This document shows positions 1,227-17,595 of a stretch of 64,000 nucleotides of DNA, piece after piece. The position numbers and the translations under genes are program-made. How positions within the stretch are numbered: the first letter of the stretch is position 1; every line of letters begins with the position of its first letter. The notes beneath the pieces were generated by a model. The model was not told where the DNA came from. It saw nothing but the letters and a program-made list of their open reading frames with translations, and made no database searches. Origin of the DNA: an uncultured Methanomassiliicoccales archaeon (GTDB lineage: Archaea; Thermoplasmatota; Thermoplasmata; Methanomassiliicoccales; Methanomethylophilaceae); NCBI GenBank assembly GCA_949298875.1, contig CASFYI010000033.1, positions 1 through 64,000 of the forward strand. Direction: 5' to 3'.

Positions 1227-2411
1227 TCACTGGGAGAGGGCCCTCTCGACCGCTCCGCGCATGGCGTCCAGCACGGCCTCCTCCATGGATGGGTCCTGCA
1301 CCCCGCCCTGGGCGAAGTCGGGCTTCCCGCCACCGCGTCCGCCGAGGGGCTTGAGCACCTCGGGAAGCAGCTTCCTGCAGTCGACGGCCGGGTCGCCGGA
1401 GGCCATGATCACGGACAGCGTGTCGGTCACGCCGACGATGAGGGCGACGCCCCCGCGGGCCTTGACCGATTCCGCCAGCTCCGTCAGGGACACCCTGTCG
1501 GTTCCGGGGAGGGATCCGCAGACGACCTCCCTGCCGGCGATCGTCTCGGAGGGCATGGACGCCGCCAGCCTCCTGGTGGCCTGCTTCAGGAGCTTCGTCT
1601 TGAGCTCGTCGTCCGCCCTCGTGTTGGCCACGGACCTGGGCGCGTCCTCCGCCTTGCAGCCTATGCCGTCCACGATCTCGAGGGCGGTGGTCGCAAGTGC
1701 CAGGGCGGCGTCCTTGGCGGGCTGTCCAACCTTGAAGTGGATGGCCACGCCGTCCGCTCCGGCGGAGACCTTCCTGTCGACGATGAGCATCTCGAGCTCG
1801 GACGTCTCCATCACATGGATCCCGCTGCATGCGGAGAGGTCGATGTCCCCGATGGCGACGACGGTGATCTCCTCGTCCTCGGGGATCCTCTCCAGCTTGA
1901 TCCTGACCTTCTCGAGGTCCGGGTCGTCGCGGTCCATGATGCTGCGCGTCACGGGGAGGTTGTCCACGATGGCCTGGTTCGCGAAGGCGGTGGCCGCCCT
2001 GATCTGGTCCCAGGTCAGGTCGTGGTTCACGATGACGTACTTGCTCTCGGGCGAGATGTAGATCTTCGTGATGGTCAGGTCGGGGCACTGCCTCCTGAGG
2101 GAGCAGAACAGGAGGTGCTCGCCGGTGTGGCCCTGCATGAGGTCGTAGCGCCTGTCCCAGTCGACGCTGCACCACACCCTCTCGCCCGGCTTCAGGTCGT
2201 TCCCAGGGACACGGTGGACTATATCGCCCTTCTCGTTGCGGAAAACCTCGGTGACGGCGCACCCGCGGATGGACCCGGTGTCGCACACCTGTCCGCCCCC
2301 GCCGGGGTAGAACGCGGTGCTGTCGAGCATCACGAGCTCTCCGTCCACGGATTCGACGTTGGCCTCGAACTCGAAGCCGTATCCGTCGCGTCTGAAGATC
2401 TCATCTGTCAT
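1227..2411 (-). CDS. alaX: Alanyl-tRNA editing protein AlaX-L
   Basis: 394 residues, homologous to the editing half of AlaRS without a synthetase domain. It hydrolyses Ser-tRNA(Ala) or Gly-tRNA(Ala) in trans. The zinc ligands are visible: HTGEH (His95, His99) and CSGIH (Cys195, His199). The N-terminal FYPGGGGQ loop marks the AlaX-M/L class. The C-terminal region, about residues 250-390, ends in a DHHA1 domain with the glycine-rich GGRGGGKPDFAQGG motif, which makes this the long form. It is divergent from the Lrp gene, with 63 bp between the starts. Confidence 0.95.
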   Translation of the reverse strand: MTDEIFRRDGYGFEFEANVESVDGELVMLDSTAFYPGGGGQVCDTGSIRGCAVTEVFRNEKGDIVHRVPGNDLKPGERVWCSVDWDRRYDLMQGHTGEHLLFCSLRRQCPDLTITKIYISPESKYVIVNHDLTWDQIRAATAFANQAIVDNLPVTRSIMDRDDPDLEKVRIKLERIPEDEEITVVAIGDIDLSACSGIHVMETSELEMLIVDRKVSAGADGVAIHFKVGQPAKDAALALATTALEIVDGIGCKAEDAPRSVANTRADDELKTKLLKQATRRLAASMPSETIAGREVVCGSLPGTDRVSLTELAESVKARGGVALIVGVTDTLSVIMASGDPAVDCRKLLPEVLKPLGGRGGGKPDFAQGGVQDPSMEEAVLDAMRGAVERALSQ

Positions 2412-2474: not shown

Positions 2475-2942
2475 ATGTCGCTCTCGGACTTCGATGAACT
2501 GGACAAACGTATAATCGAACTTCTCTGCAGATCCAGCCAGGGCTCCTACAGGCAGCTCGCGAAGCAGCTCGATGTCCATCCGACGACACTCATCCAGAGG
2601 GTCAAGAACCTGGAGTCCAAGGGGGTCATCAACGGATACCGTGCCAGCATCGACTACATGAAGCTCGGCTTCGAGTACATGGGCATGGTCAGCGTCATCG
2701 CCGAGAACGTGGTGACCGTCCAGGGCGAGATCTCCAAGATCCCGCAGGTGGTGTCCGTGTTCGACGTCACCGGCGACAGCGACTGCCTCGTCTGGATCGC
2801 CTGCCAGAACAGGGACGAGTTCTCCGAGGTCGTGAAGGAGATCAACGCCGTGCCGGACGTCAAGAAGACAAGCACCGCGGTCATCCTGAACATCACCAAG
2901 GACCCGTTCACCTACATCCCGCCCATACTCGGCGAGAGGTGA
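2475..2942 (+). CDS. Lrp/AsnC family transcriptional regulator
   Basis: 155 residues. Residues 1-60 form an AsnC-type winged helix-turn-helix (LDKRIIELLCRSSQGSYRQL then HPTTLIQRVKNLESKG). Residues about 70-150 form the RAM ligand-binding and oligomerisation domain (FDVTGDSDCLVWIACQ). Such proteins sense amino acids and often regulate neighbouring or divergent genes. It starts 63 bp from the divergent alaX. Its target and effector cannot be read from the sequence. Confidence 0.93.
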   Translation: MSLSDFDELDKRIIELLCRSSQGSYRQLAKQLDVHPTTLIQRVKNLESKGVINGYRASIDYMKLGFEYMGMVSVIAENVVTVQGEISKIPQVVSVFDVTGDSDCLVWIACQNRDEFSEVVKEINAVPDVKKTSTAVILNITKDPFTYIPPILGER

Positions 2943-4914: not shown

Positions 4915-4945
4915 TCACATTATCCCAACGCCGGTCGTGTTCCGC

Positions 4946-6499
4946 ATGGGACTGAGCTTCGAGGAGCGCGGCGGACGGACTTGCGTCTACAGATGCACCT
5001 CCAAGAGGGTCCCTGGGAAGAGGGATCCGGTTTCCAGGAAGGAGTATCTCGGTGTCATCGACCCCTCCACGGGGTTGGTCCACCCCAAGGGGATGGAACC
5101 GGACAAACTGGGGCGGATTCTGACCGATGGTCAGTTCCGGTGTCTGGATTACGGGAACGTCCTCATCGCCCACAGGGCAGCGGAGAATCTGGGTCTGGAT
5201 CGGATCCTGTCCGACATCTTCGGGAAGGATGCGGGAATCATCCTGGCTGCATCGATATGCGAGGCGGTTGATCCGTGCCCCATCGATGGGATCCAGGTCG
5301 TGGCCTACCGTCTCTATCTAGGGGATATCATCGGTGCCGGGACGCGTCTCACGAGGAATTCGTTGTTGAAGGCCGTGGACGGCATCGACTACACCGGCAA
5401 GGTTCTGCCGGAGATCGCCGACAGACTGAGTGGGGGATCCGATGGGTTGCTGCTCGTCGGTACCGAAGGCAGGCTGTGCAGTATCGGCCCCATGATAGGA
5501 CGGGATGGACAAATCATCGACCGCGGCGCTGCCAGAGTGGTATCATTCGTGAACGATTCGGATATCCCGGTTCTGTCACTGCTCGTCCTGGGGGACCGCA
5601 GCCCGGTCATCCTGCGGCAGATGGCTGACAGGTTCTCGGGGAGCCATCATCTGACTATGGTCTTGGACGGAGTCTCAGAGGATCCCGGATTTCTGTCAAG
5701 GTGCCTGATGAGCGGAGCTTCCGTCGTGGTGGGTTGCTCCCCAACGTCGGAACAGGTAGGGGTGGCATTACGTGATTTCATCGGCGGACAGGGGGAGGAG
5801 ATCGTCCGCAACGGAGTCATCCACAGGGTGCTCCGGAGAAGGTTTGGGCTGGTGCGGGTCGATGATGGGTGGTTGACGGTCGGCGACGACGACTCAAGAT
5901 TCCGTCAGAGCATGTTCTGGATCTGCGCATACGTTTCGAAGCCTCTGGATGAGTTCCACAGGGACGGTCTGACGCAGTATCTTGCGAGACAGATGGAGTT
6001 TCTTGCCGATCATGAGGAAGGTATGGTGTTCAGGACAGATGTCCTAGAGGAGATCAGGAAGGGTCCGCCGTTCGGTTCTGACGGATCGCACGGCATGATG
6101 AGGGCTATCAGGGATCATTCTGGTGTGACGGTCATACTGTCGGACATCACAGATTGGAACGAGGCCATGGATCGTCTGGACAGGGGCTGTAGCATATCGG
6201 AGTCAATCGGTGTTTTCGCCGACCTGCTGTTCGACAGGACGGGATCGCAAAGGTACGGGGTGGCCGATCTTCTGGTACCGCAGCTGGCTTCGATGATCGT
6301 CTGCGAGATGCAGAGGGTGCTCGAGGATTCGGATGAGCATATGGATGTCCGCAGTGCTATGGGGGTTGCATCGTCCTACAGGGTCGTGGTCAACGACGGC
6401 AGGATCATTCCAGGTGAGATGTCGAGGGATGCTGAGAGGGTACTTCGTCTGTTCGACATTCCTCATCAGAATGCAAGAATGCGTGTGCAGAATGTGTAA
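4946..6499 (+). CDS. IS1634/IS4-like transposase-derived protein, catalytically degenerate
   Basis: 517 residues from ATG 4946; a GTG at 4937 would add three. The N-terminus (VYRCTSKRVPGKRDPVSRKEYLGVIDPSTG) and overall plan resemble IS1634-type DDE transposases. Where such enzymes have a first catalytic Asp (DTTS-like strand) this protein reads LLLVGTEGRL, and the usual DRGF around the second Asp reads VLDGVSEDPGF. The expected Glu region (about residues 415-445) is also not typical. The frame is nonetheless intact over 1.5 kb and no terminal inverted repeats or target duplication are obvious. It looks like a domesticated or slowly decaying transposase. Family assignment is from motif memory only. 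An uncharacterised membrane protein follows 85 bp downstream. Confidence 0.6.
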   Translation: MGLSFEERGGRTCVYRCTSKRVPGKRDPVSRKEYLGVIDPSTGLVHPKGMEPDKLGRILTDGQFRCLDYGNVLIAHRAAENLGLDRILSDIFGKDAGIILAASICEAVDPCPIDGIQVVAYRLYLGDIIGAGTRLTRNSLLKAVDGIDYTGKVLPEIADRLSGGSDGLLLVGTEGRLCSIGPMIGRDGQIIDRGAARVVSFVNDSDIPVLSLLVLGDRSPVILRQMADRFSGSHHLTMVLDGVSEDPGFLSRCLMSGASVVVGCSPTSEQVGVALRDFIGGQGEEIVRNGVIHRVLRRRFGLVRVDDGWLTVGDDDSRFRQSMFWICAYVSKPLDEFHRDGLTQYLARQMEFLADHEEGMVFRTDVLEEIRKGPPFGSDGSHGMMRAIRDHSGVTVILSDITDWNEAMDRLDRGCSISESIGVFADLLFDRTGSQRYGVADLLVPQLASMIVCEMQRVLEDSDEHMDVRSAMGVASSYRVVVNDGRIIPGEMSRDAERVLRLFDIPHQNARMRVQNV

Positions 6500-13717: not shown

Positions 13718-13765
13718 ATTAGACATTTGTCTAATTGCCGTGTGGATGTTAGAAATTCGTCTATT
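13718..13765 (+). promoter_or_regulatory. Palindromic operator sites upstream of amtB1
   Basis: Site 1, ATTAGACATTTGTCTAAT (13718-13735), has perfect 8-bp arms and a 2-bp centre. Site 2, GTTAGAAATTCGTCTATT (13748-13765), matches it at 14 of 18 positions, with centres 30 bp apart. Further half-sites lie downstream (AATAGACGAAT near 13828, and TTGTCT / AGACAA at about 13848-13868). A near-identical site precedes amtB2, so this is a likely binding site of a shared nitrogen regulator. Confidence 0.65.
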
Positions 13766-13816
13766 CTACGTTCAAATCTAGGTGTAAAAATCTAATGAAA
13801 TCCATGTTATGTAGAA

Positions 13817-13827
13817 TTTATTAAATA
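13817..13827 (+). promoter_or_regulatory. TATA box of amtB1
   Basis: TTTATTAAATA, 54 bp before the ATG at 13881. The operator half-sites lie between it and the gene. Confidence 0.6.
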
Positions 13828-13880
13828 CAATAGACGAATAAGCGCGATTGTCTGATTCAATTAGACAAATGAGGCATAAC

Positions 13881-15218
13881 ATGAGCTTCAAGAAGACAGT
13901 GATCATCGCCACGATCGCCGTGGCAATCGTCGCGGTGCTCCTCGCCGCGGTCCCGGAAGCGGTTTCCGCGGACACTCACGAGATCGGAGAGCAGTCCGGC
14001 GACTTCGCGAACATGGCATGGGTGGCGATCTGCTCGGCACTCGTTTTCATCATGACCCCCGGGGTCGCCCTGTTCTACGGAGGGATGCTCAGGAAGCAGA
14101 GCATGTCGTCCATCATCTCCCAGACGCTCCTCGGGATGTGCGTCATGGGCATATCCTGGTTCGCCGTGGGTTACTCCCTGGCCTTCTCGGAGGGCAACGC
14201 CATCATCGGGGGCCTGGACAACGTGTTCTTCAACGGCGTCTCCGCATCCACGATCGGAGGGACCAACGCATACGTCCCGGACCTCGAGTTCGCGATATTC
14301 CAGATGACCTTCGCCCTCATCACCGCGGGCATCGTCCTCGGTGCCAGCGCCGAGCGCATAAGGTACACCGCGGTAGTCCCGTTCCTCGCGGTCTGGTCCA
14401 TCCTCGTGTACGCGCCCATGGCCCACATGGTCTGGGGAGGGGGATTCCTCGCAGACCTTCCGGGAGGACTCGCCACTCTCGACTTCGCCGGAGGTACCGT
14501 CGTCCACATCTGCGCGGGAGCCACCGGAATGGCCCTCGCCCTCTACCTCGGCAAGCGCAGCGATAGGACCATGAAGAGGACCCACAGCACCCCCATGGTC
14601 TTCATCGGATGCTTCCTACTCTGGTTCGGATGGATCGGGTTCAACGGCGGATCCGGTCTCGCCGCCAACGATCAGGCCATCCGTGCGATCATGGTGTCGC
14701 TCATCGCCTCCGTGTTCGCCATGGCCGCATGGGCCGCCGTCCAGTATCTCCACGTCGGACGCGTCGGAGTCACAGGGCTCTCCGCGGGAGCGGTCGCCGG
14801 GCTCGTCGCCATCACCCCCGCCGCGGGATTCGTGTCCCCGGCAAGTGCGGCGATCATCGGTCTCGTCGGCGGGATCGTGTGCTACTTCGGAGTGATATTC
14901 ATGCGCGAGAGGTCGGGCCTCGACGACGCCCTGGACGTCATGGGACTCCACGGGGTCGGAGGCATCTGGGGCGCCATCGCCACCGGACTCTTCGCCGAGT
15001 TCAATCTGGGCTCCGCCGGAGGACTCCTGACCACTGGAGACTGGCAGCTGTTCGCGGGCAACATCGTCGCGGTCCTCGTGACGCTGGTGTTCTGCTTCGT
15101 GGTGTCGTACGTCATCATCTGGGTCATCGGCAGGCTGATGAGGGTGCGCGCGACCGAGGACGAGGAGCTCATCGGGCAGGACCTCGTCGAGAACGGAGAG
15201 CCCGCATACGTGATGTGA
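13881..15218 (+). CDS. amtB: Ammonium transporter, copy 1
   Basis: 445 residues. An N-terminal signal-like helix (residues 1-31, ending VPEAVSA) is followed by 11 membrane helices of the Amt/Mep/Rh fold. Pore residues are present: the first twin His in PMAHMVWGGGF (about 182), DFAGGTVVHICAG after it, and the second twin His in MGLHGVGGIWGAI (about 357). The ATG at 13881 is preceded by TGAGG at 7 nt; upstream ATG 13869 and TTG 13848 are less well placed and lie in the operator region. Its stop is 5 nt from glnK1. Imports ammonium across the cytoplasmic membrane. Confidence 0.96.
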   Translation: MSFKKTVIIATIAVAIVAVLLAAVPEAVSADTHEIGEQSGDFANMAWVAICSALVFIMTPGVALFYGGMLRKQSMSSIISQTLLGMCVMGISWFAVGYSLAFSEGNAIIGGLDNVFFNGVSASTIGGTNAYVPDLEFAIFQMTFALITAGIVLGASAERIRYTAVVPFLAVWSILVYAPMAHMVWGGGFLADLPGGLATLDFAGGTVVHICAGATGMALALYLGKRSDRTMKRTHSTPMVFIGCFLLWFGWIGFNGGSGLAANDQAIRAIMVSLIASVFAMAAWAAVQYLHVGRVGVTGLSAGAVAGLVAITPAAGFVSPASAAIIGLVGGIVCYFGVIFMRERSGLDDALDVMGLHGVGGIWGAIATGLFAEFNLGSAGGLLTTGDWQLFAGNIVAVLVTLVFCFVVSYVIIWVIGRLMRVRATEDEELIGQDLVENGEPAYVM

Positions 15219-15223
15219 TCCCC

Positions 15224-15559
15224 ATGAAGATGGTTGTAGCAGTGATCAGGCCCGAGAGGCTCCAGACCGTCAAGGACGGTCTGAGCGCCATCGGGGTTTG
15301 CGGCATGACGATAACCCACGTCACCGGACGCGGGGAGCAGAAGGGGCTGGTCTTCACGACCAGGGTCGGCGAGTTCATCGTCGATGAGATCGAGAAGGTG
15401 AAGCTCGAGATCGTCGTCGACGACGGGCAGGTCGACAACGTGGTCGCCAACATCCGCCAGAACGCGGAGACGGGCCACCCCGGCGACGGCAGGATCTTCA
15501 TCATGCCGGTCCTGGAATCCATAAGGATCCGTTCGGAGCCAGGCTCCGAGGGACAGTAA
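15224..15559 (+). CDS. glnK: Nitrogen regulatory PII protein GlnK, copy 1
   Basis: 111 residues, the full PII fold starting MKMVVAVIRPERLQTVK. The T-loop (about residues 37-55, THVTGRGEQKGLVFTTRVGEF) keeps GRGxQKG but has Phe where Tyr51 is uridylylated in proteobacteria. The B-loop TGHPGDGRIFI is present. GlnK plugs the AmtB pore when nitrogen is plentiful and responds to ATP/ADP and 2-oxoglutarate. It is 5 nt after amtB1 and ends in the same residues (LESIRIRSEPGSEGQ) as copy 2. Confidence 0.97.
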   Translation: MKMVVAVIRPERLQTVKDGLSAIGVCGMTITHVTGRGEQKGLVFTTRVGEFIVDEIEKVKLEIVVDDGQVDNVVANIRQNAETGHPGDGRIFIMPVLESIRIRSEPGSEGQ

Positions 15560-15608
15560 ACGCCTTACGGGGTCGTCAGTCCCCGCAATCCTCCTGAAAC
15601 ACCTTATG

Positions 15609-15637
15609 CCTCCCGGACGACCGATGCGTCCGGGAGG
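15609..15637 (+). terminator. Hairpin downstream of glnK1, conserved in both amt-glnK units
   Basis: An 11-bp perfect stem (CCTCCCGGACG / CGTCCGGGAGG) with a 7-nt loop, 50 nt after the stop. The equivalent hairpin after glnK2 differs at two stem positions, both of which keep pairing as G-U wobbles. Confidence 0.65.
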
Positions 15638-15831
15638 GCGATCATCCATTCTCTGTGTCCGCGGCATTCCGACGATGCCGGCGGCCGTTCGTCGCAACTT
15701 CTGCGTTCCGCATCCGAGTCCGGATCCACCGTCCCGTCTCTCCGACCGAGAGGTCATGCATCCGTGAGCTGCAGATAATTTCGAACTATTCTTGATTTGT
15801 ATAGTTATACGTCTAGTCAAGTTCAAATAAT
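15638..15831 (+). other. Intergenic region before amtB2
   Basis: About 190 bp without a coding signal. Its left part is G+C-rich and holds a small inverted repeat (GGCAT / ATGCC near 15663-15679). The right part is AT-rich with GTATAGTTATACG and other short palindromic stretches that may be promoter or regulator sites. No RNA gene is recognised. Confidence 0.5.
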
Positions 15832-15849
15832 ATTATACAAATGTCTAAT
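15832..15849 (+). promoter_or_regulatory. Palindromic operator site upstream of amtB2
   Basis: ATTATACAAATGTCTAAT matches the amtB1 site ATTAGACA-N2-TGTCTAAT with one arm mismatch (T for G). It overlaps or abuts the TATA-like element AATATTATA (about 15828-15836), so a bound protein would block transcription. Confidence 0.65.
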
Positions 15850-15890: not shown

Positions 15891-17249
15891 TTGAAGAACT
15901 CGATGAAGGTCATCCTCGGGATCGTGGCGGCGGTCACCGCAGCCACTCTGCTGGTCCCGACGGCATCCGCCGCCGCCCCATCTTTCGATGAGGGCTCGGT
16001 GGACCTGGTATCCTCACTCTTCATGTTCCTGGCGACGATGATGGTGTTCATCATGGCGCCAGCCATAGCCCTGTTCTACGGCGGCATGCTCAGAAAGCAG
16101 AGCATGACATCCCTCATGGCCCAGTGCATCGGGGTCATGGCCCTTGTCGGCATCATCTGGTGGGCTGTCGGCTACTCGCTCACGTTCGGCGACGGAGGCA
16201 ACGGGGGCATCATAGGCAATCTCGACTACATCCTGGGGCAGGGCGTCGATCCGAGCACCGGGAACGGGGCGCAGATGATCCCCACCGCGGAGTTCCTCGT
16301 GTTCCAGGGGACCTTCGCGATCGTCACCGCATGCATCGTGTTCGGTGCGACGGCCGAGAGGGTCAGGTACCCGGCCATCCTGGCGTTCCTCGCGATCTGG
16401 TCGTTCCTCGTCTACGCTCCGATGGCGCACATGGTCTGGGGAGGCGGATTCATCAGCTCCGGGCTCACCGACATGGGTCTCCCGAACCAGGATTTCGCCG
16501 GAGGGACCGTGGTGCACATATGCTCTGGAATATCCGGCGCGGCGGCGGCCCTGGCCATAGGCAGGCGCAGCGACCGCATCATGAAGGGCCGCGCGCACAA
16601 CGTCCCGCTGATGTTCATCGGATGCATGCTGCTGTGGCTCGGATGGTTCGGCTTCAACTGCGGATCCGAGGGCGGGTTCGACTCCACGGCGATCCTCGCG
16701 ATGGAGAACACGTTCCTCGCCTCCTGCGTGTCCACCGTGGTGTGGATCATCATCCAGTACATCCACGTCGGGCGCGTCAGCGTCACCGGTCTGTGCGCAG
16801 GGGTCCTGGCGGGTCTCGTCGGCATAACGCCCGGATGCGGGTTCGTCGACCCGTGGGCGGCCGTGATCATAGGAGCCGCGGCCTCCGTCATCTGCTACGC
16901 GGGAATCGTGTTCATGCGCGGCAGGAAGGATGTGGACGACGCCCTGGATGTCATGGGCCTGCACGGGATAGGCGGAATCTGGGGAGCGATCGCGGTCGGG
17001 ATCTTCTCGGTCGCGTCATACAGCTGGGAGGGCAGCGGCGGACTGATCGTCGGACAGGTCGACCTCCTGGCCGGACAGGTCGTATCCGTGGTGATCACCC
17101 TGATCTACTGCTTCGTCGTGTCCTTCGTGATCATGAAGGCCATCGACCTGGTCATGAGGCGCTTCGCAGGGAAGGGCGCAGCCCTCACCGAGGACGAGCA
17201 GATGGTGGGCTCCGACATTGTGGAGCACGGGGAGCCCTCATACCTCTGA
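15891..17249 (+). CDS. amtB: Ammonium transporter, copy 2
   Basis: 452 residues from a TTG start, chosen because AAGGAG lies 9 nt upstream; ATG 15903 would be 21 nt away. The signal-like N-terminal helix ends PTASAA, followed by 11 helices. Pore motifs match copy 1: PMAHMVWGGGF, DFAGGTVVHICSG and MGLHGIGGIWGAI. It is clearly paralogous to copy 1 but diverged throughout, so the duplication is old. glnK2 follows after 10 nt. Confidence 0.95.
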   Translation: MKNSMKVILGIVAAVTAATLLVPTASAAAPSFDEGSVDLVSSLFMFLATMMVFIMAPAIALFYGGMLRKQSMTSLMAQCIGVMALVGIIWWAVGYSLTFGDGGNGGIIGNLDYILGQGVDPSTGNGAQMIPTAEFLVFQGTFAIVTACIVFGATAERVRYPAILAFLAIWSFLVYAPMAHMVWGGGFISSGLTDMGLPNQDFAGGTVVHICSGISGAAAALAIGRRSDRIMKGRAHNVPLMFIGCMLLWLGWFGFNCGSEGGFDSTAILAMENTFLASCVSTVVWIIIQYIHVGRVSVTGLCAGVLAGLVGITPGCGFVDPWAAVIIGAAASVICYAGIVFMRGRKDVDDALDVMGLHGIGGIWGAIAVGIFSVASYSWEGSGGLIVGQVDLLAGQVVSVVITLIYCFVVSFVIMKAIDLVMRRFAGKGAALTEDEQMVGSDIVEHGEPSYL

Positions 17250-17259
17250 GGTGGTTCGG

Positions 17260-17595
17260 ATGAGGATGGTTGTAGCTGTTGTCAGGCCCGAGAGGCTCCA
17301 GGCCGTCAAGGACGGTCTCAGGGACATCGGGGTGTACGGTATGACGATCACCCACGTCACCGGACGCGGGAAGCAGAAGGGGCTGGTCTTCACGACCAGG
17401 GTCGGCGAGTTCATCGTCGACGAGATCGAGAAGACCAAGATCGAGATCGTCGTCGATGACGACAAGGTCGACTGCGTAGTCGCCAACATCCGCGAGAACG
17501 CGGAGACAGGTCATCCCGGGGACGGGAGGATCTTCATCATACCAGTCCTGGAATCCATAAGGATCCGTTCGGAGCCCGGCTCCGAGGGACAGTAA
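17260..17595 (+). CDS. glnK: Nitrogen regulatory PII protein GlnK, copy 2
   Basis: 111 residues, nearly identical to copy 1. Differences cluster at the N-terminal helix and in the DDDKVDCVVANIRENAETG segment. The T-loop has THVTGRGKQKGLVFTTRVGEF, again with Phe at the Tyr51 position. The start is preceded by TGAGGTG, which contains the amtB2 stop, with 13 nt from stop to ATG. It probably pairs with AmtB2, but the T-loops are so alike that cross-regulation with AmtB1 is plausible. Confidence 0.97.
   Translation: MRMVVAVVRPERLQAVKDGLRDIGVYGMTITHVTGRGKQKGLVFTTRVGEFIVDEIEKTKIEIVVDDDKVDCVVANIRENAETGHPGDGRIFIIPVLESIRIRSEPGSEGQ

What the first reader, a model, noticed from the sequence alone, without database searches (positions are those of the whole stretch)
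13718..15849. A shared palindromic operator (ATTAKACA-N2-TGTCTAAT) in both amtB promoters
ATTAGACATTTGTCTAAT at 13718 and ATTATACAAATGTCTAAT at 15832 match at 15 of 18 positions overall and differ at one arm position. A second site at 13748 matches 14 of 18, and further half-sites flank the amtB1 start. The flanking DNA of the two promoters is otherwise unlike. The motif does not look like the NrpR operators of Methanococcus (GGAA-N6-TTCC type). This suggests a nitrogen regulator with a different recognition sequence.
Basis: partly seen in the sequence, partly recalled or inferred. Interest (0 to 1): 0.75.

Follow-up and report, generated by a model that had tools for sequence, protein, structure and literature searches.

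The report
Nitrogen operator and its Lrp regulator
A short mirror-image DNA sequence in front of this gut-methanogen relative's two ammonium-transporter genes is a real regulatory switch site, conserved across its whole order, and it is most likely bound by an Lrp-type protein encoded 11 kb away that runs a nitrogen-gene programme in methanogens that lack the classical nitrogen regulator NrpR.

Summary
ATTAGACA-WW-TGTCTAAT is a genuine operator. In this MAG (Ca. Methanomethylophilaceae) all four sites with up to 3 mismatches precede nitrogen genes: amtB1, amtB2, type III glutamine synthetase and glutamate dehydrogenase. With up to 1 mismatch it occurs 133 times in 102 family genomes, against 0 for the reversed control. 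Targets are amtB, glnN, gdh, gltS, nifH, nifV, and in a few species monomethylamine corrinoid/pylS genes.

The probable regulator lies in the window: a 155-aa Lrp/AsnC protein at 2475-2942(+). Its orthologues track the motif. In genomes at least 90% complete, 28 have both, 0 the motif alone, 4 the regulator alone (all with 2-3-mismatch amtB sites), 13 neither. A matrix trained only on amtB sites of this family finds sites at the regulator's own promoter in two genera here and nearly all members of a second family. NrpR is absent from all 147 genomes of the order. Closest solved structures: Grp (glutamine receptor) and FL11.

Shown by sequence: motif, regulon, co-occurrence, own-promoter sites, 30-32 bp pair spacing. 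Inferred: direct binding, glutamine as effector, sign of control. Archaeal Lrps on nitrogen genes are known (Sa-Lrp), so this is a new variant of a known kind.

The parts
2475..2942 (+). Candidate regulator: Lrp/AsnC-family protein, 155 aa (N-terminal winged HTH with recognition helix 36-48, C-terminal RAM domain)
   Evidence: Pfam AsnC HTH + ligand-binding domain on the G008 orthologue; NCBIfam Lrp models on the window protein; best PDB matches Grp/ST1022 and FL11/PH1519; co-occurs with the motif; HPTTLIQR invariant
1227..2411 (-). AlaX-like alanyl-tRNA-editing protein (394 aa), divergent from the regulator and sharing its intergenic region
   Evidence: NCBIfam AlaXM/AlaRS partial matches, below cut-off; same divergent pair in g6, g12 and G117
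13718..13735 (.). Operator O1 of amtB1, perfect ATTAGACA-TT-TGTCTAAT
13748..13765 (.). Second, weaker operator of amtB1 (4 mismatches), 30 bp (three helical turns) from O1
   Evidence: 30-32 bp spacing enriched across loci
13817..13827 (+). Probable TATA element of amtB1 (TTTATTAAATA)
   Evidence: sequence inspection; inference
13849..13867 (.). Divergently arranged half-sites TGTCTGAT / ATTAGACA around the presumed amtB1 transcription start
13881..15218 (+). amtB1, ammonium transporter (445 aa)
   Evidence: TIGR00836 above cut-off
15224..15559 (+). glnK-type PII gene downstream of amtB1
   Evidence: (in-frame part of the 14609-15559 ORF) and similarity to the 17260 copy; inference from sequence
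15832..15849 (.). Operator of amtB2, ATTATACAAATGTCTAAT (1 mismatch), overlapping or directly following the A/T-rich TATA region
15891..17249 (+). amtB2, ammonium transporter (452 aa, TTG start as listed)
   Evidence: TIGR00836 above cut-off
17260..17595 (+). glnK-type PII gene downstream of amtB2
   Evidence: PII models E about 1e-24, below equivalog cut-offs

Best explanation
The palindrome is the operator of an order-wide nitrogen regulon, and the protein that binds it is the Lrp/AsnC-type regulator encoded at 2475-2942 of this window. A dimer places its two recognition helices (HPTTLIQRVK, nearly invariant) in the two ATTAGACA half-sites, with the A/T pair at the centre; [quoted passage not shown] Operators upstream of the TATA box (gltS, glnN, gdh, the amtB1 pair) are in the position of an activator. 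Operators that follow the TATA box (the regulator's own gene in other species, amtB2 here) are in the position of a repressor. The signal is most likely glutamine bound in the RAM domain. Shown by sequence: operator, targets, co-occurrence, own-promoter sites, spacing. Inferred: direct binding, effector, sign of control.
For: Motif and targets. Co-occurrence of regulator and motif: 57 both / 5 motif only (all in genomes 61-87% complete) / 11 regulator only / 29 neither, Fisher 1e-11; in genomes at least 90% complete 28/0/4/13, Fisher 3e-8; 0 of 20000 within-genus shuffles reach the observed agreement. The 4 regulator-only complete genomes have 2-3-mismatch amtB sites. Own promoter: sites with 0-1 mismatch 32-47 bp before the start in g6 and g12, and sites with up to 4 mismatches 17-27 bp before the start in 12 of 13 family-f5 genomes tested, found with a matrix trained only on f1 amtB sites; 47 other ORF upstreams in those loci gave one weak hit elsewhere. 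In many genomes the regulator lies 6-16 kb from amtB. NrpR 0 of 147. Nearest structures Grp and FL11. Spacing enrichment; promoter geometry.
Against: No binding or expression data. In this genome and its genus the regulator's own promoter has no good site. Seven amt genes in regulator-bearing genomes lack a site with up to 3 mismatches. Eleven genomes carry the regulator without a site with up to 1 mismatch. Known archaeal Lrp sites are usually degenerate and FL11's is 13 bp, whereas this one is an 18-bp, even, high-information palindrome. Glutamine as effector rests on about 34%-identity homology and two conserved threonines.
Confidence: 0.85

Rival explanations
1. The motif is a nitrogen operator, but another, unidentified DNA-binding protein of the order binds it; the Lrp orthologue is only a fellow member of the regulon and is lost together with it.
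For: Targets of a regulon can include other regulators, and the Lrp's own promoter carries sites only in some lineages. I could not list all transcription factors of these genomes.
Against: An own-promoter site in front of this same gene in two separate families, near-perfect co-occurrence, a nearly invariant recognition helix and persistent linkage to amtB. The other Lrp paralogue (about 28% identity) is present with or without the motif, so it does not track it.
Confidence: 0.12
2. The regulator is right, but it works as a pure NrpR-like repressor of all targets, relieved by 2-oxoglutarate or by contact with PII, rather than as a glutamine-sensing activator/repressor.
For: Own-promoter sites follow the TATA box; a stand-alone RAM protein is reported to respond to 2-oxoglutarate (PMC2995911); amtB genes here are followed by PII genes.
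Against: In gltS the operator lies about 33 bp upstream of a conserved TATA box, an activator position. The nearest homologues with known effectors, Grp and Sa-Lrp, bind glutamine.
Confidence: 0.25
3. The two palindromes are chance or copies of a mobile repeat.
For: None found.
Against: 0 control hits against 133 sites in 102 genomes; sites sit at orthologous promoters with mostly unrelated flanks.
Confidence: 0.01

Closest known systems
Sa-Lrp of Sulfolobus acidocaldarius (PMC3584215)
   Same: Archaeal Lrp that binds gltB, gdhA and glnA control regions and responds to glutamine.
   Different: It also binds many other promoters and acts partly as an architectural protein; expression effects on nitrogen genes were about twofold. 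Here there is a sharp 18-bp operator, a compact nitrogen regulon that includes amtB and nif genes, and a different archaeal class.
Grp (ST1022) of Sulfolobus tokodaii, glutamine receptor protein (PDB 2e7w, 2efo, 2efq)
   Same: Closest PDB sequence (about 34% identity, E 6e-20); Thr132 and Thr134, positions mutated in ST1022 structures, are T132 and T134 here and invariant among aligned orthologues.
   Different: Operator and regulon of Grp are not comparable from what was read; orthology not shown.
FL11 (PH1519) of Pyrococcus OT3
   Same: Same fold and domain order; co-crystal with a palindromic DNA site (2e1c).
   Different: FL11's site is 13 bp and its coregulators are lysine/arginine; a different operator.
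NrpR of Methanococcus and Methanosarcina
   Same: Palindromic operator in front of amtB-glnK, glnA and nif genes of methanogens (own knowledge); the same physiological task.
   Different: Unrelated protein; absent from all 147 genomes of this order; different operator sequence.
Haloarchaeal Lrp (Halobacterium salinarum, Haloferax mediterranei)
   Same: Lrp proteins linked to nitrogen or amino-acid metabolism; best NCBIfam model is the haloarchaeal Lrp.
   Different: Score 88.7 against a cut-off of 190, so not an equivalent member.

Membership tests
Lrp/AsnC (feast/famine) transcription regulators | N-terminal AsnC-type winged HTH plus C-terminal RAM ligand domain | tested here: met
   PF13404 35.4 bits (cut-off 27) and PF01037 53.1 bits (cut-off 25) on the G008 orthologue, which is 62% identical to the window protein; predicted HTH 8-48 and RAM 68-137
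Lrp/AsnC (feast/famine) transcription regulators | Lrp fold, nearest solved structures are Lrp proteins | tested here: met
   Foldseek probability 1.00 to 2cyy, 2efo, 2e1c; whole-chain TM only about 0.55 with rmsd about 11 A, probably from the hinge between the domains
Lrp/AsnC (feast/famine) transcription regulators | Sites often spaced by two or three helical turns | tested here: met
   Second sites with up to 5 mismatches: 9, 5, 5 at 30, 31, 32 bp against 0.53 per offset on average, 110 non-redundant loci; rule in PMC2995911
Lrp/AsnC (feast/famine) transcription regulators | Binds DNA as dimer/octamer at the operator | not testable with these tools
   needs gel shift or footprint
Glutamine-responsive Lrp subgroup (Grp, Sa-Lrp) | Glutamine is the effector | not testable with these tools
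   only homology and conserved T132/T134
Glutamine-responsive Lrp subgroup (Grp, Sa-Lrp) | Orthology to Grp/Sa-Lrp | tested here: inconclusive
   about 34% identity, best PDB match; no tree was built
NrpR regulon | NrpR protein (PF01995) encoded in the genome | tested here: not met
   0 of 147 genomes; positive controls M. jannaschii and M. acetivorans
NrpR regulon | GGAA-N6-TTCC type operator | tested here: not met
   the conserved element is ATTAGACA-WW-TGTCTAAT

The most novel reading that the evidence does not exclude
Methanomassiliicoccales lack NrpR and instead run nitrogen assimilation, nitrogen fixation and, in some species, monomethylamine/pyrrolysine genes with a single Lrp-type regulator that has a sharp operator, activates or represses according to its place relative to the TATA box, and has been lost together with all its operators in several gut lineages.
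Probability: 0.55. Interest if true: 0.75.

Novelty: new variant of a known kind. Interest (0 to 1): 0.62.

Why it matters
In the PubMed Central library I could search, no paper was found that describes transcriptional nitrogen control in Methanomassiliicoccales, methylotrophic methanogens common in animal guts, and NrpR is taken as the euryarchaeal nitrogen regulator. Here a regulator, its operator and its regulon are predicted together at base-pair level. The regulon can be tested directly, and it gives one clear case of one nitrogen regulator standing in place of another between methanogen lineages. The sites near monomethylamine and pylS genes suggest that a methanogenesis substrate is also managed as an ammonia source.

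Tried and rejected
NrpR as the regulator: absent from the genome and the order. The second Lrp paralogue: present with or without the motif. Own-promoter control in this very genome: the 3-mismatch match at 2498-2515 lies inside the regulator's coding sequence over the conserved ELDKRII codons and recurs weakly in orthologues, so it is read as a coding coincidence. A matrix-score profile around sites was uninformative because of strongly negative log-odds; mismatch counts were used instead. A first background test over all order-level loci (31 of 551) counted ORFs that share the regulator's own intergenic region; the refined test on f5 loci gave 1 hit elsewhere among 47. Literature searches for the motif letters or for Lrp with Methanomassiliicoccales found nothing relevant. 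The search for organism names found only 12 relatives. Motif and regulator were not searched outside the order.

Full report
WHAT WAS CHECKED. The window is the first 64 kb of a 97.9-kb contig (C33) in a 1.34-Mb, 80%-complete assembly. Its closest named relatives are Candidatus Methanomethylophilaceae archaea. The amtB1 promoter also has the 14-of-18 site at 13748, exactly 30 bp from the first, and half-sites at 13849 and 13860 around the presumed transcription start. In 100 dinucleotide shuffles of the window none reached the observed number of matches.

THE MOTIF IS REAL. In the whole assembly only four places have up to 3 mismatches: amtB1, amtB2, C24:38083 and C34:158 (reversed control 1). 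The last two are 60 bp upstream of a type III glutamine synthetase (GSIII, Pfam above cut-off) and 94 bp upstream of a glutamate dehydrogenase orthologue. In 102 genomes of the family there are 133 places with up to 1 mismatch (my sum of the column) and none for the reversed control; over the 147 genomes of the order the control is still zero.

THE REGULON. I fetched the family sites that were not the obvious amtB ones (74 places) and asked which genes start next to them. Twenty-six precede GSIII, 69-115 bp from the start and mostly 69-85. Fourteen precede glutamate dehydrogenase, five a glutamate-synthase-type protein at a nearly constant 82-84 bp, two nifH, one nifV and one a related synthase, three further amt genes, and six the Lrp/AlaX pair described below. 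Three precede methylamine-type corrinoid genes and one lies 154 bp upstream of pylS. One precedes a DUF1846 protein, two (one promoter) an HTH_10 protein. Nine stayed unassigned, four of them close to contig ends. Identities of the key proteins come from Pfam and NCBIfam. For amt genes, 59 of 66 in genomes with the regulator carry a site with up to 3 mismatches within 350 bp; 0 of 8 do in genomes without it; the reversed control gives 0.

THE REGULATOR. One of the sites in G008 lies in front of a 155-aa Lrp/AsnC protein. Its orthologue in this genome is at 2475-2942 of the window, divergent from an AlaX-like gene, 11 kb from amtB1. Orthologues (bits above 150) occur in 68 of 102 family genomes. 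Presence of orthologue and of motif agree in 86 of 102 genomes. In genomes at least 90% complete the counts are 28 both, 0 motif only, 4 regulator only, 13 neither, and the four have 2-3-mismatch amtB sites. Shuffling within genera never reached the observed agreement in 20000 trials; this handles relatedness only roughly, since no species tree was built. Both are missing together in parts of g1, g5 and g9 and in all of g8, which suggests several joint losses.

OWN-PROMOTER SITES. I built a matrix from amtB sites of this family only (75 sites, centre W-W) and scored the 150 bp before each regulator gene. Perfect or 1-mismatch sites lie 32-47 bp before the start in g6 and g12. In another family of the order (f5), 12 of 13 orthologues tested have a site with up to 4 mismatches 17-27 bp before the start, where shuffles never matched it. 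In the f5 loci, 47 upstreams of other ORFs gave one weak hit elsewhere. Several f6 members have a related variant (AAAAGACATATATCTAAT). amtB promoters outside the family carry relaxed versions such as ATTATACATTTATCTAAT. The genus of the window has lost or never had the own-promoter site.

HOW IT PROBABLY WORKS. The protein has the Lrp layout, a predicted recognition helix 36-48 and a RAM domain; nearest structures are PH1519/FL11 and ST1022/Grp. HPTTLIQR in and before the recognition helix and the RAM residues T132 and T134 are invariant in the aligned orthologues, apart from one I-to-M change in a wider set. T132 and T134 align with two threonines mutated in ST1022 structures; that they contact glutamine there is my reading of those entries. 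Second sites are enriched at 30, 31 and 32 bp from the first (9, 5 and 5 cases against 0.53 per offset), which fits dimers on one face of the helix as described for archaeal Lrps (PMC2995911). In gltS a strong TATA box starts 51 bp after the operator start, so the operator is upstream of the basal promoter; in the regulator's own promoter the TATA box lies just before the operator; amtB has both arrangements. I infer activation from upstream sites and repression from downstream sites. In the window, amtB1 has an upstream pair plus half-sites near the start, amtB2 a site at the TATA region.

COMPARISON. Sa-Lrp binds gltB, gdhA and glnA promoters and responds to glutamine (PMC3584215), so an Lrp on nitrogen genes is known in archaea. 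What differs is the sharp 18-bp operator, the inclusion of amtB and nif genes, and the place in the tree: a methanogen order in which NrpR is absent (0 of 147, with positive controls). The comparative paper on the order (PMC4153887) discusses ammonia uptake, GlnN and ammonia from monomethylamine; searching its main text found no mention of NrpR, Lrp or a transcriptional regulator. The corrinoid/methyltransferase/pylS sites fit that picture but rest on four genomes.

LIMITS. No binding or expression evidence. I could not list all regulators, so an unseen co-occurring protein is not excluded. Genomes are mostly assemblies of varying completeness. The effector and the sign of control are inferences.

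Noticed in passing
L117:3994, L120:4061, L133:4000, L165:3540 (G008, G009, G018, G078): The same operator precedes methylamine-type corrinoid genes (with a pyrrolysine-containing methyltransferase gene next to it in G009 and G078) and pylS in G078, suggesting nitrogen control of monomethylamine use.
   Followed up: partly
G050, G054, G055, G059, G060, G063, G065 and all of genus g8: Genomes that lack both regulator and motif; the first seven keep amtB with no recognisable site, so their nitrogen control is unexplained.
   Followed up: no
window 1227-2411: AlaX-like alanyl-tRNA-editing protein is repeatedly the divergent neighbour of the Lrp gene and shares its operator in g6 and g12; why a tRNA-editing gene should go with nitrogen control is unclear.
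   Followed up: partly
L152:2957 and 3142 (G064): Two operators in front of an HTH_10 (bacterioopsin-activator-type) regulator in a genome where no amtB was found.
   Followed up: no
L130:3994 (G017): A perfect operator about 40-50 bp upstream of a DUF1846 protein of unknown role.
   Followed up: no
amtB2-type promoters of genus g1 (L009, L024, L042, L044) and L070 of g9: Two operators at a constant distance of 123-124 bp, one distal and one near the start, as if for looping or dual control.
   Followed up: partly
window 4937-6499: 520-aa ORF between the regulator and amtB1 that looks like a transposase; not checked against any library.
   Followed up: no
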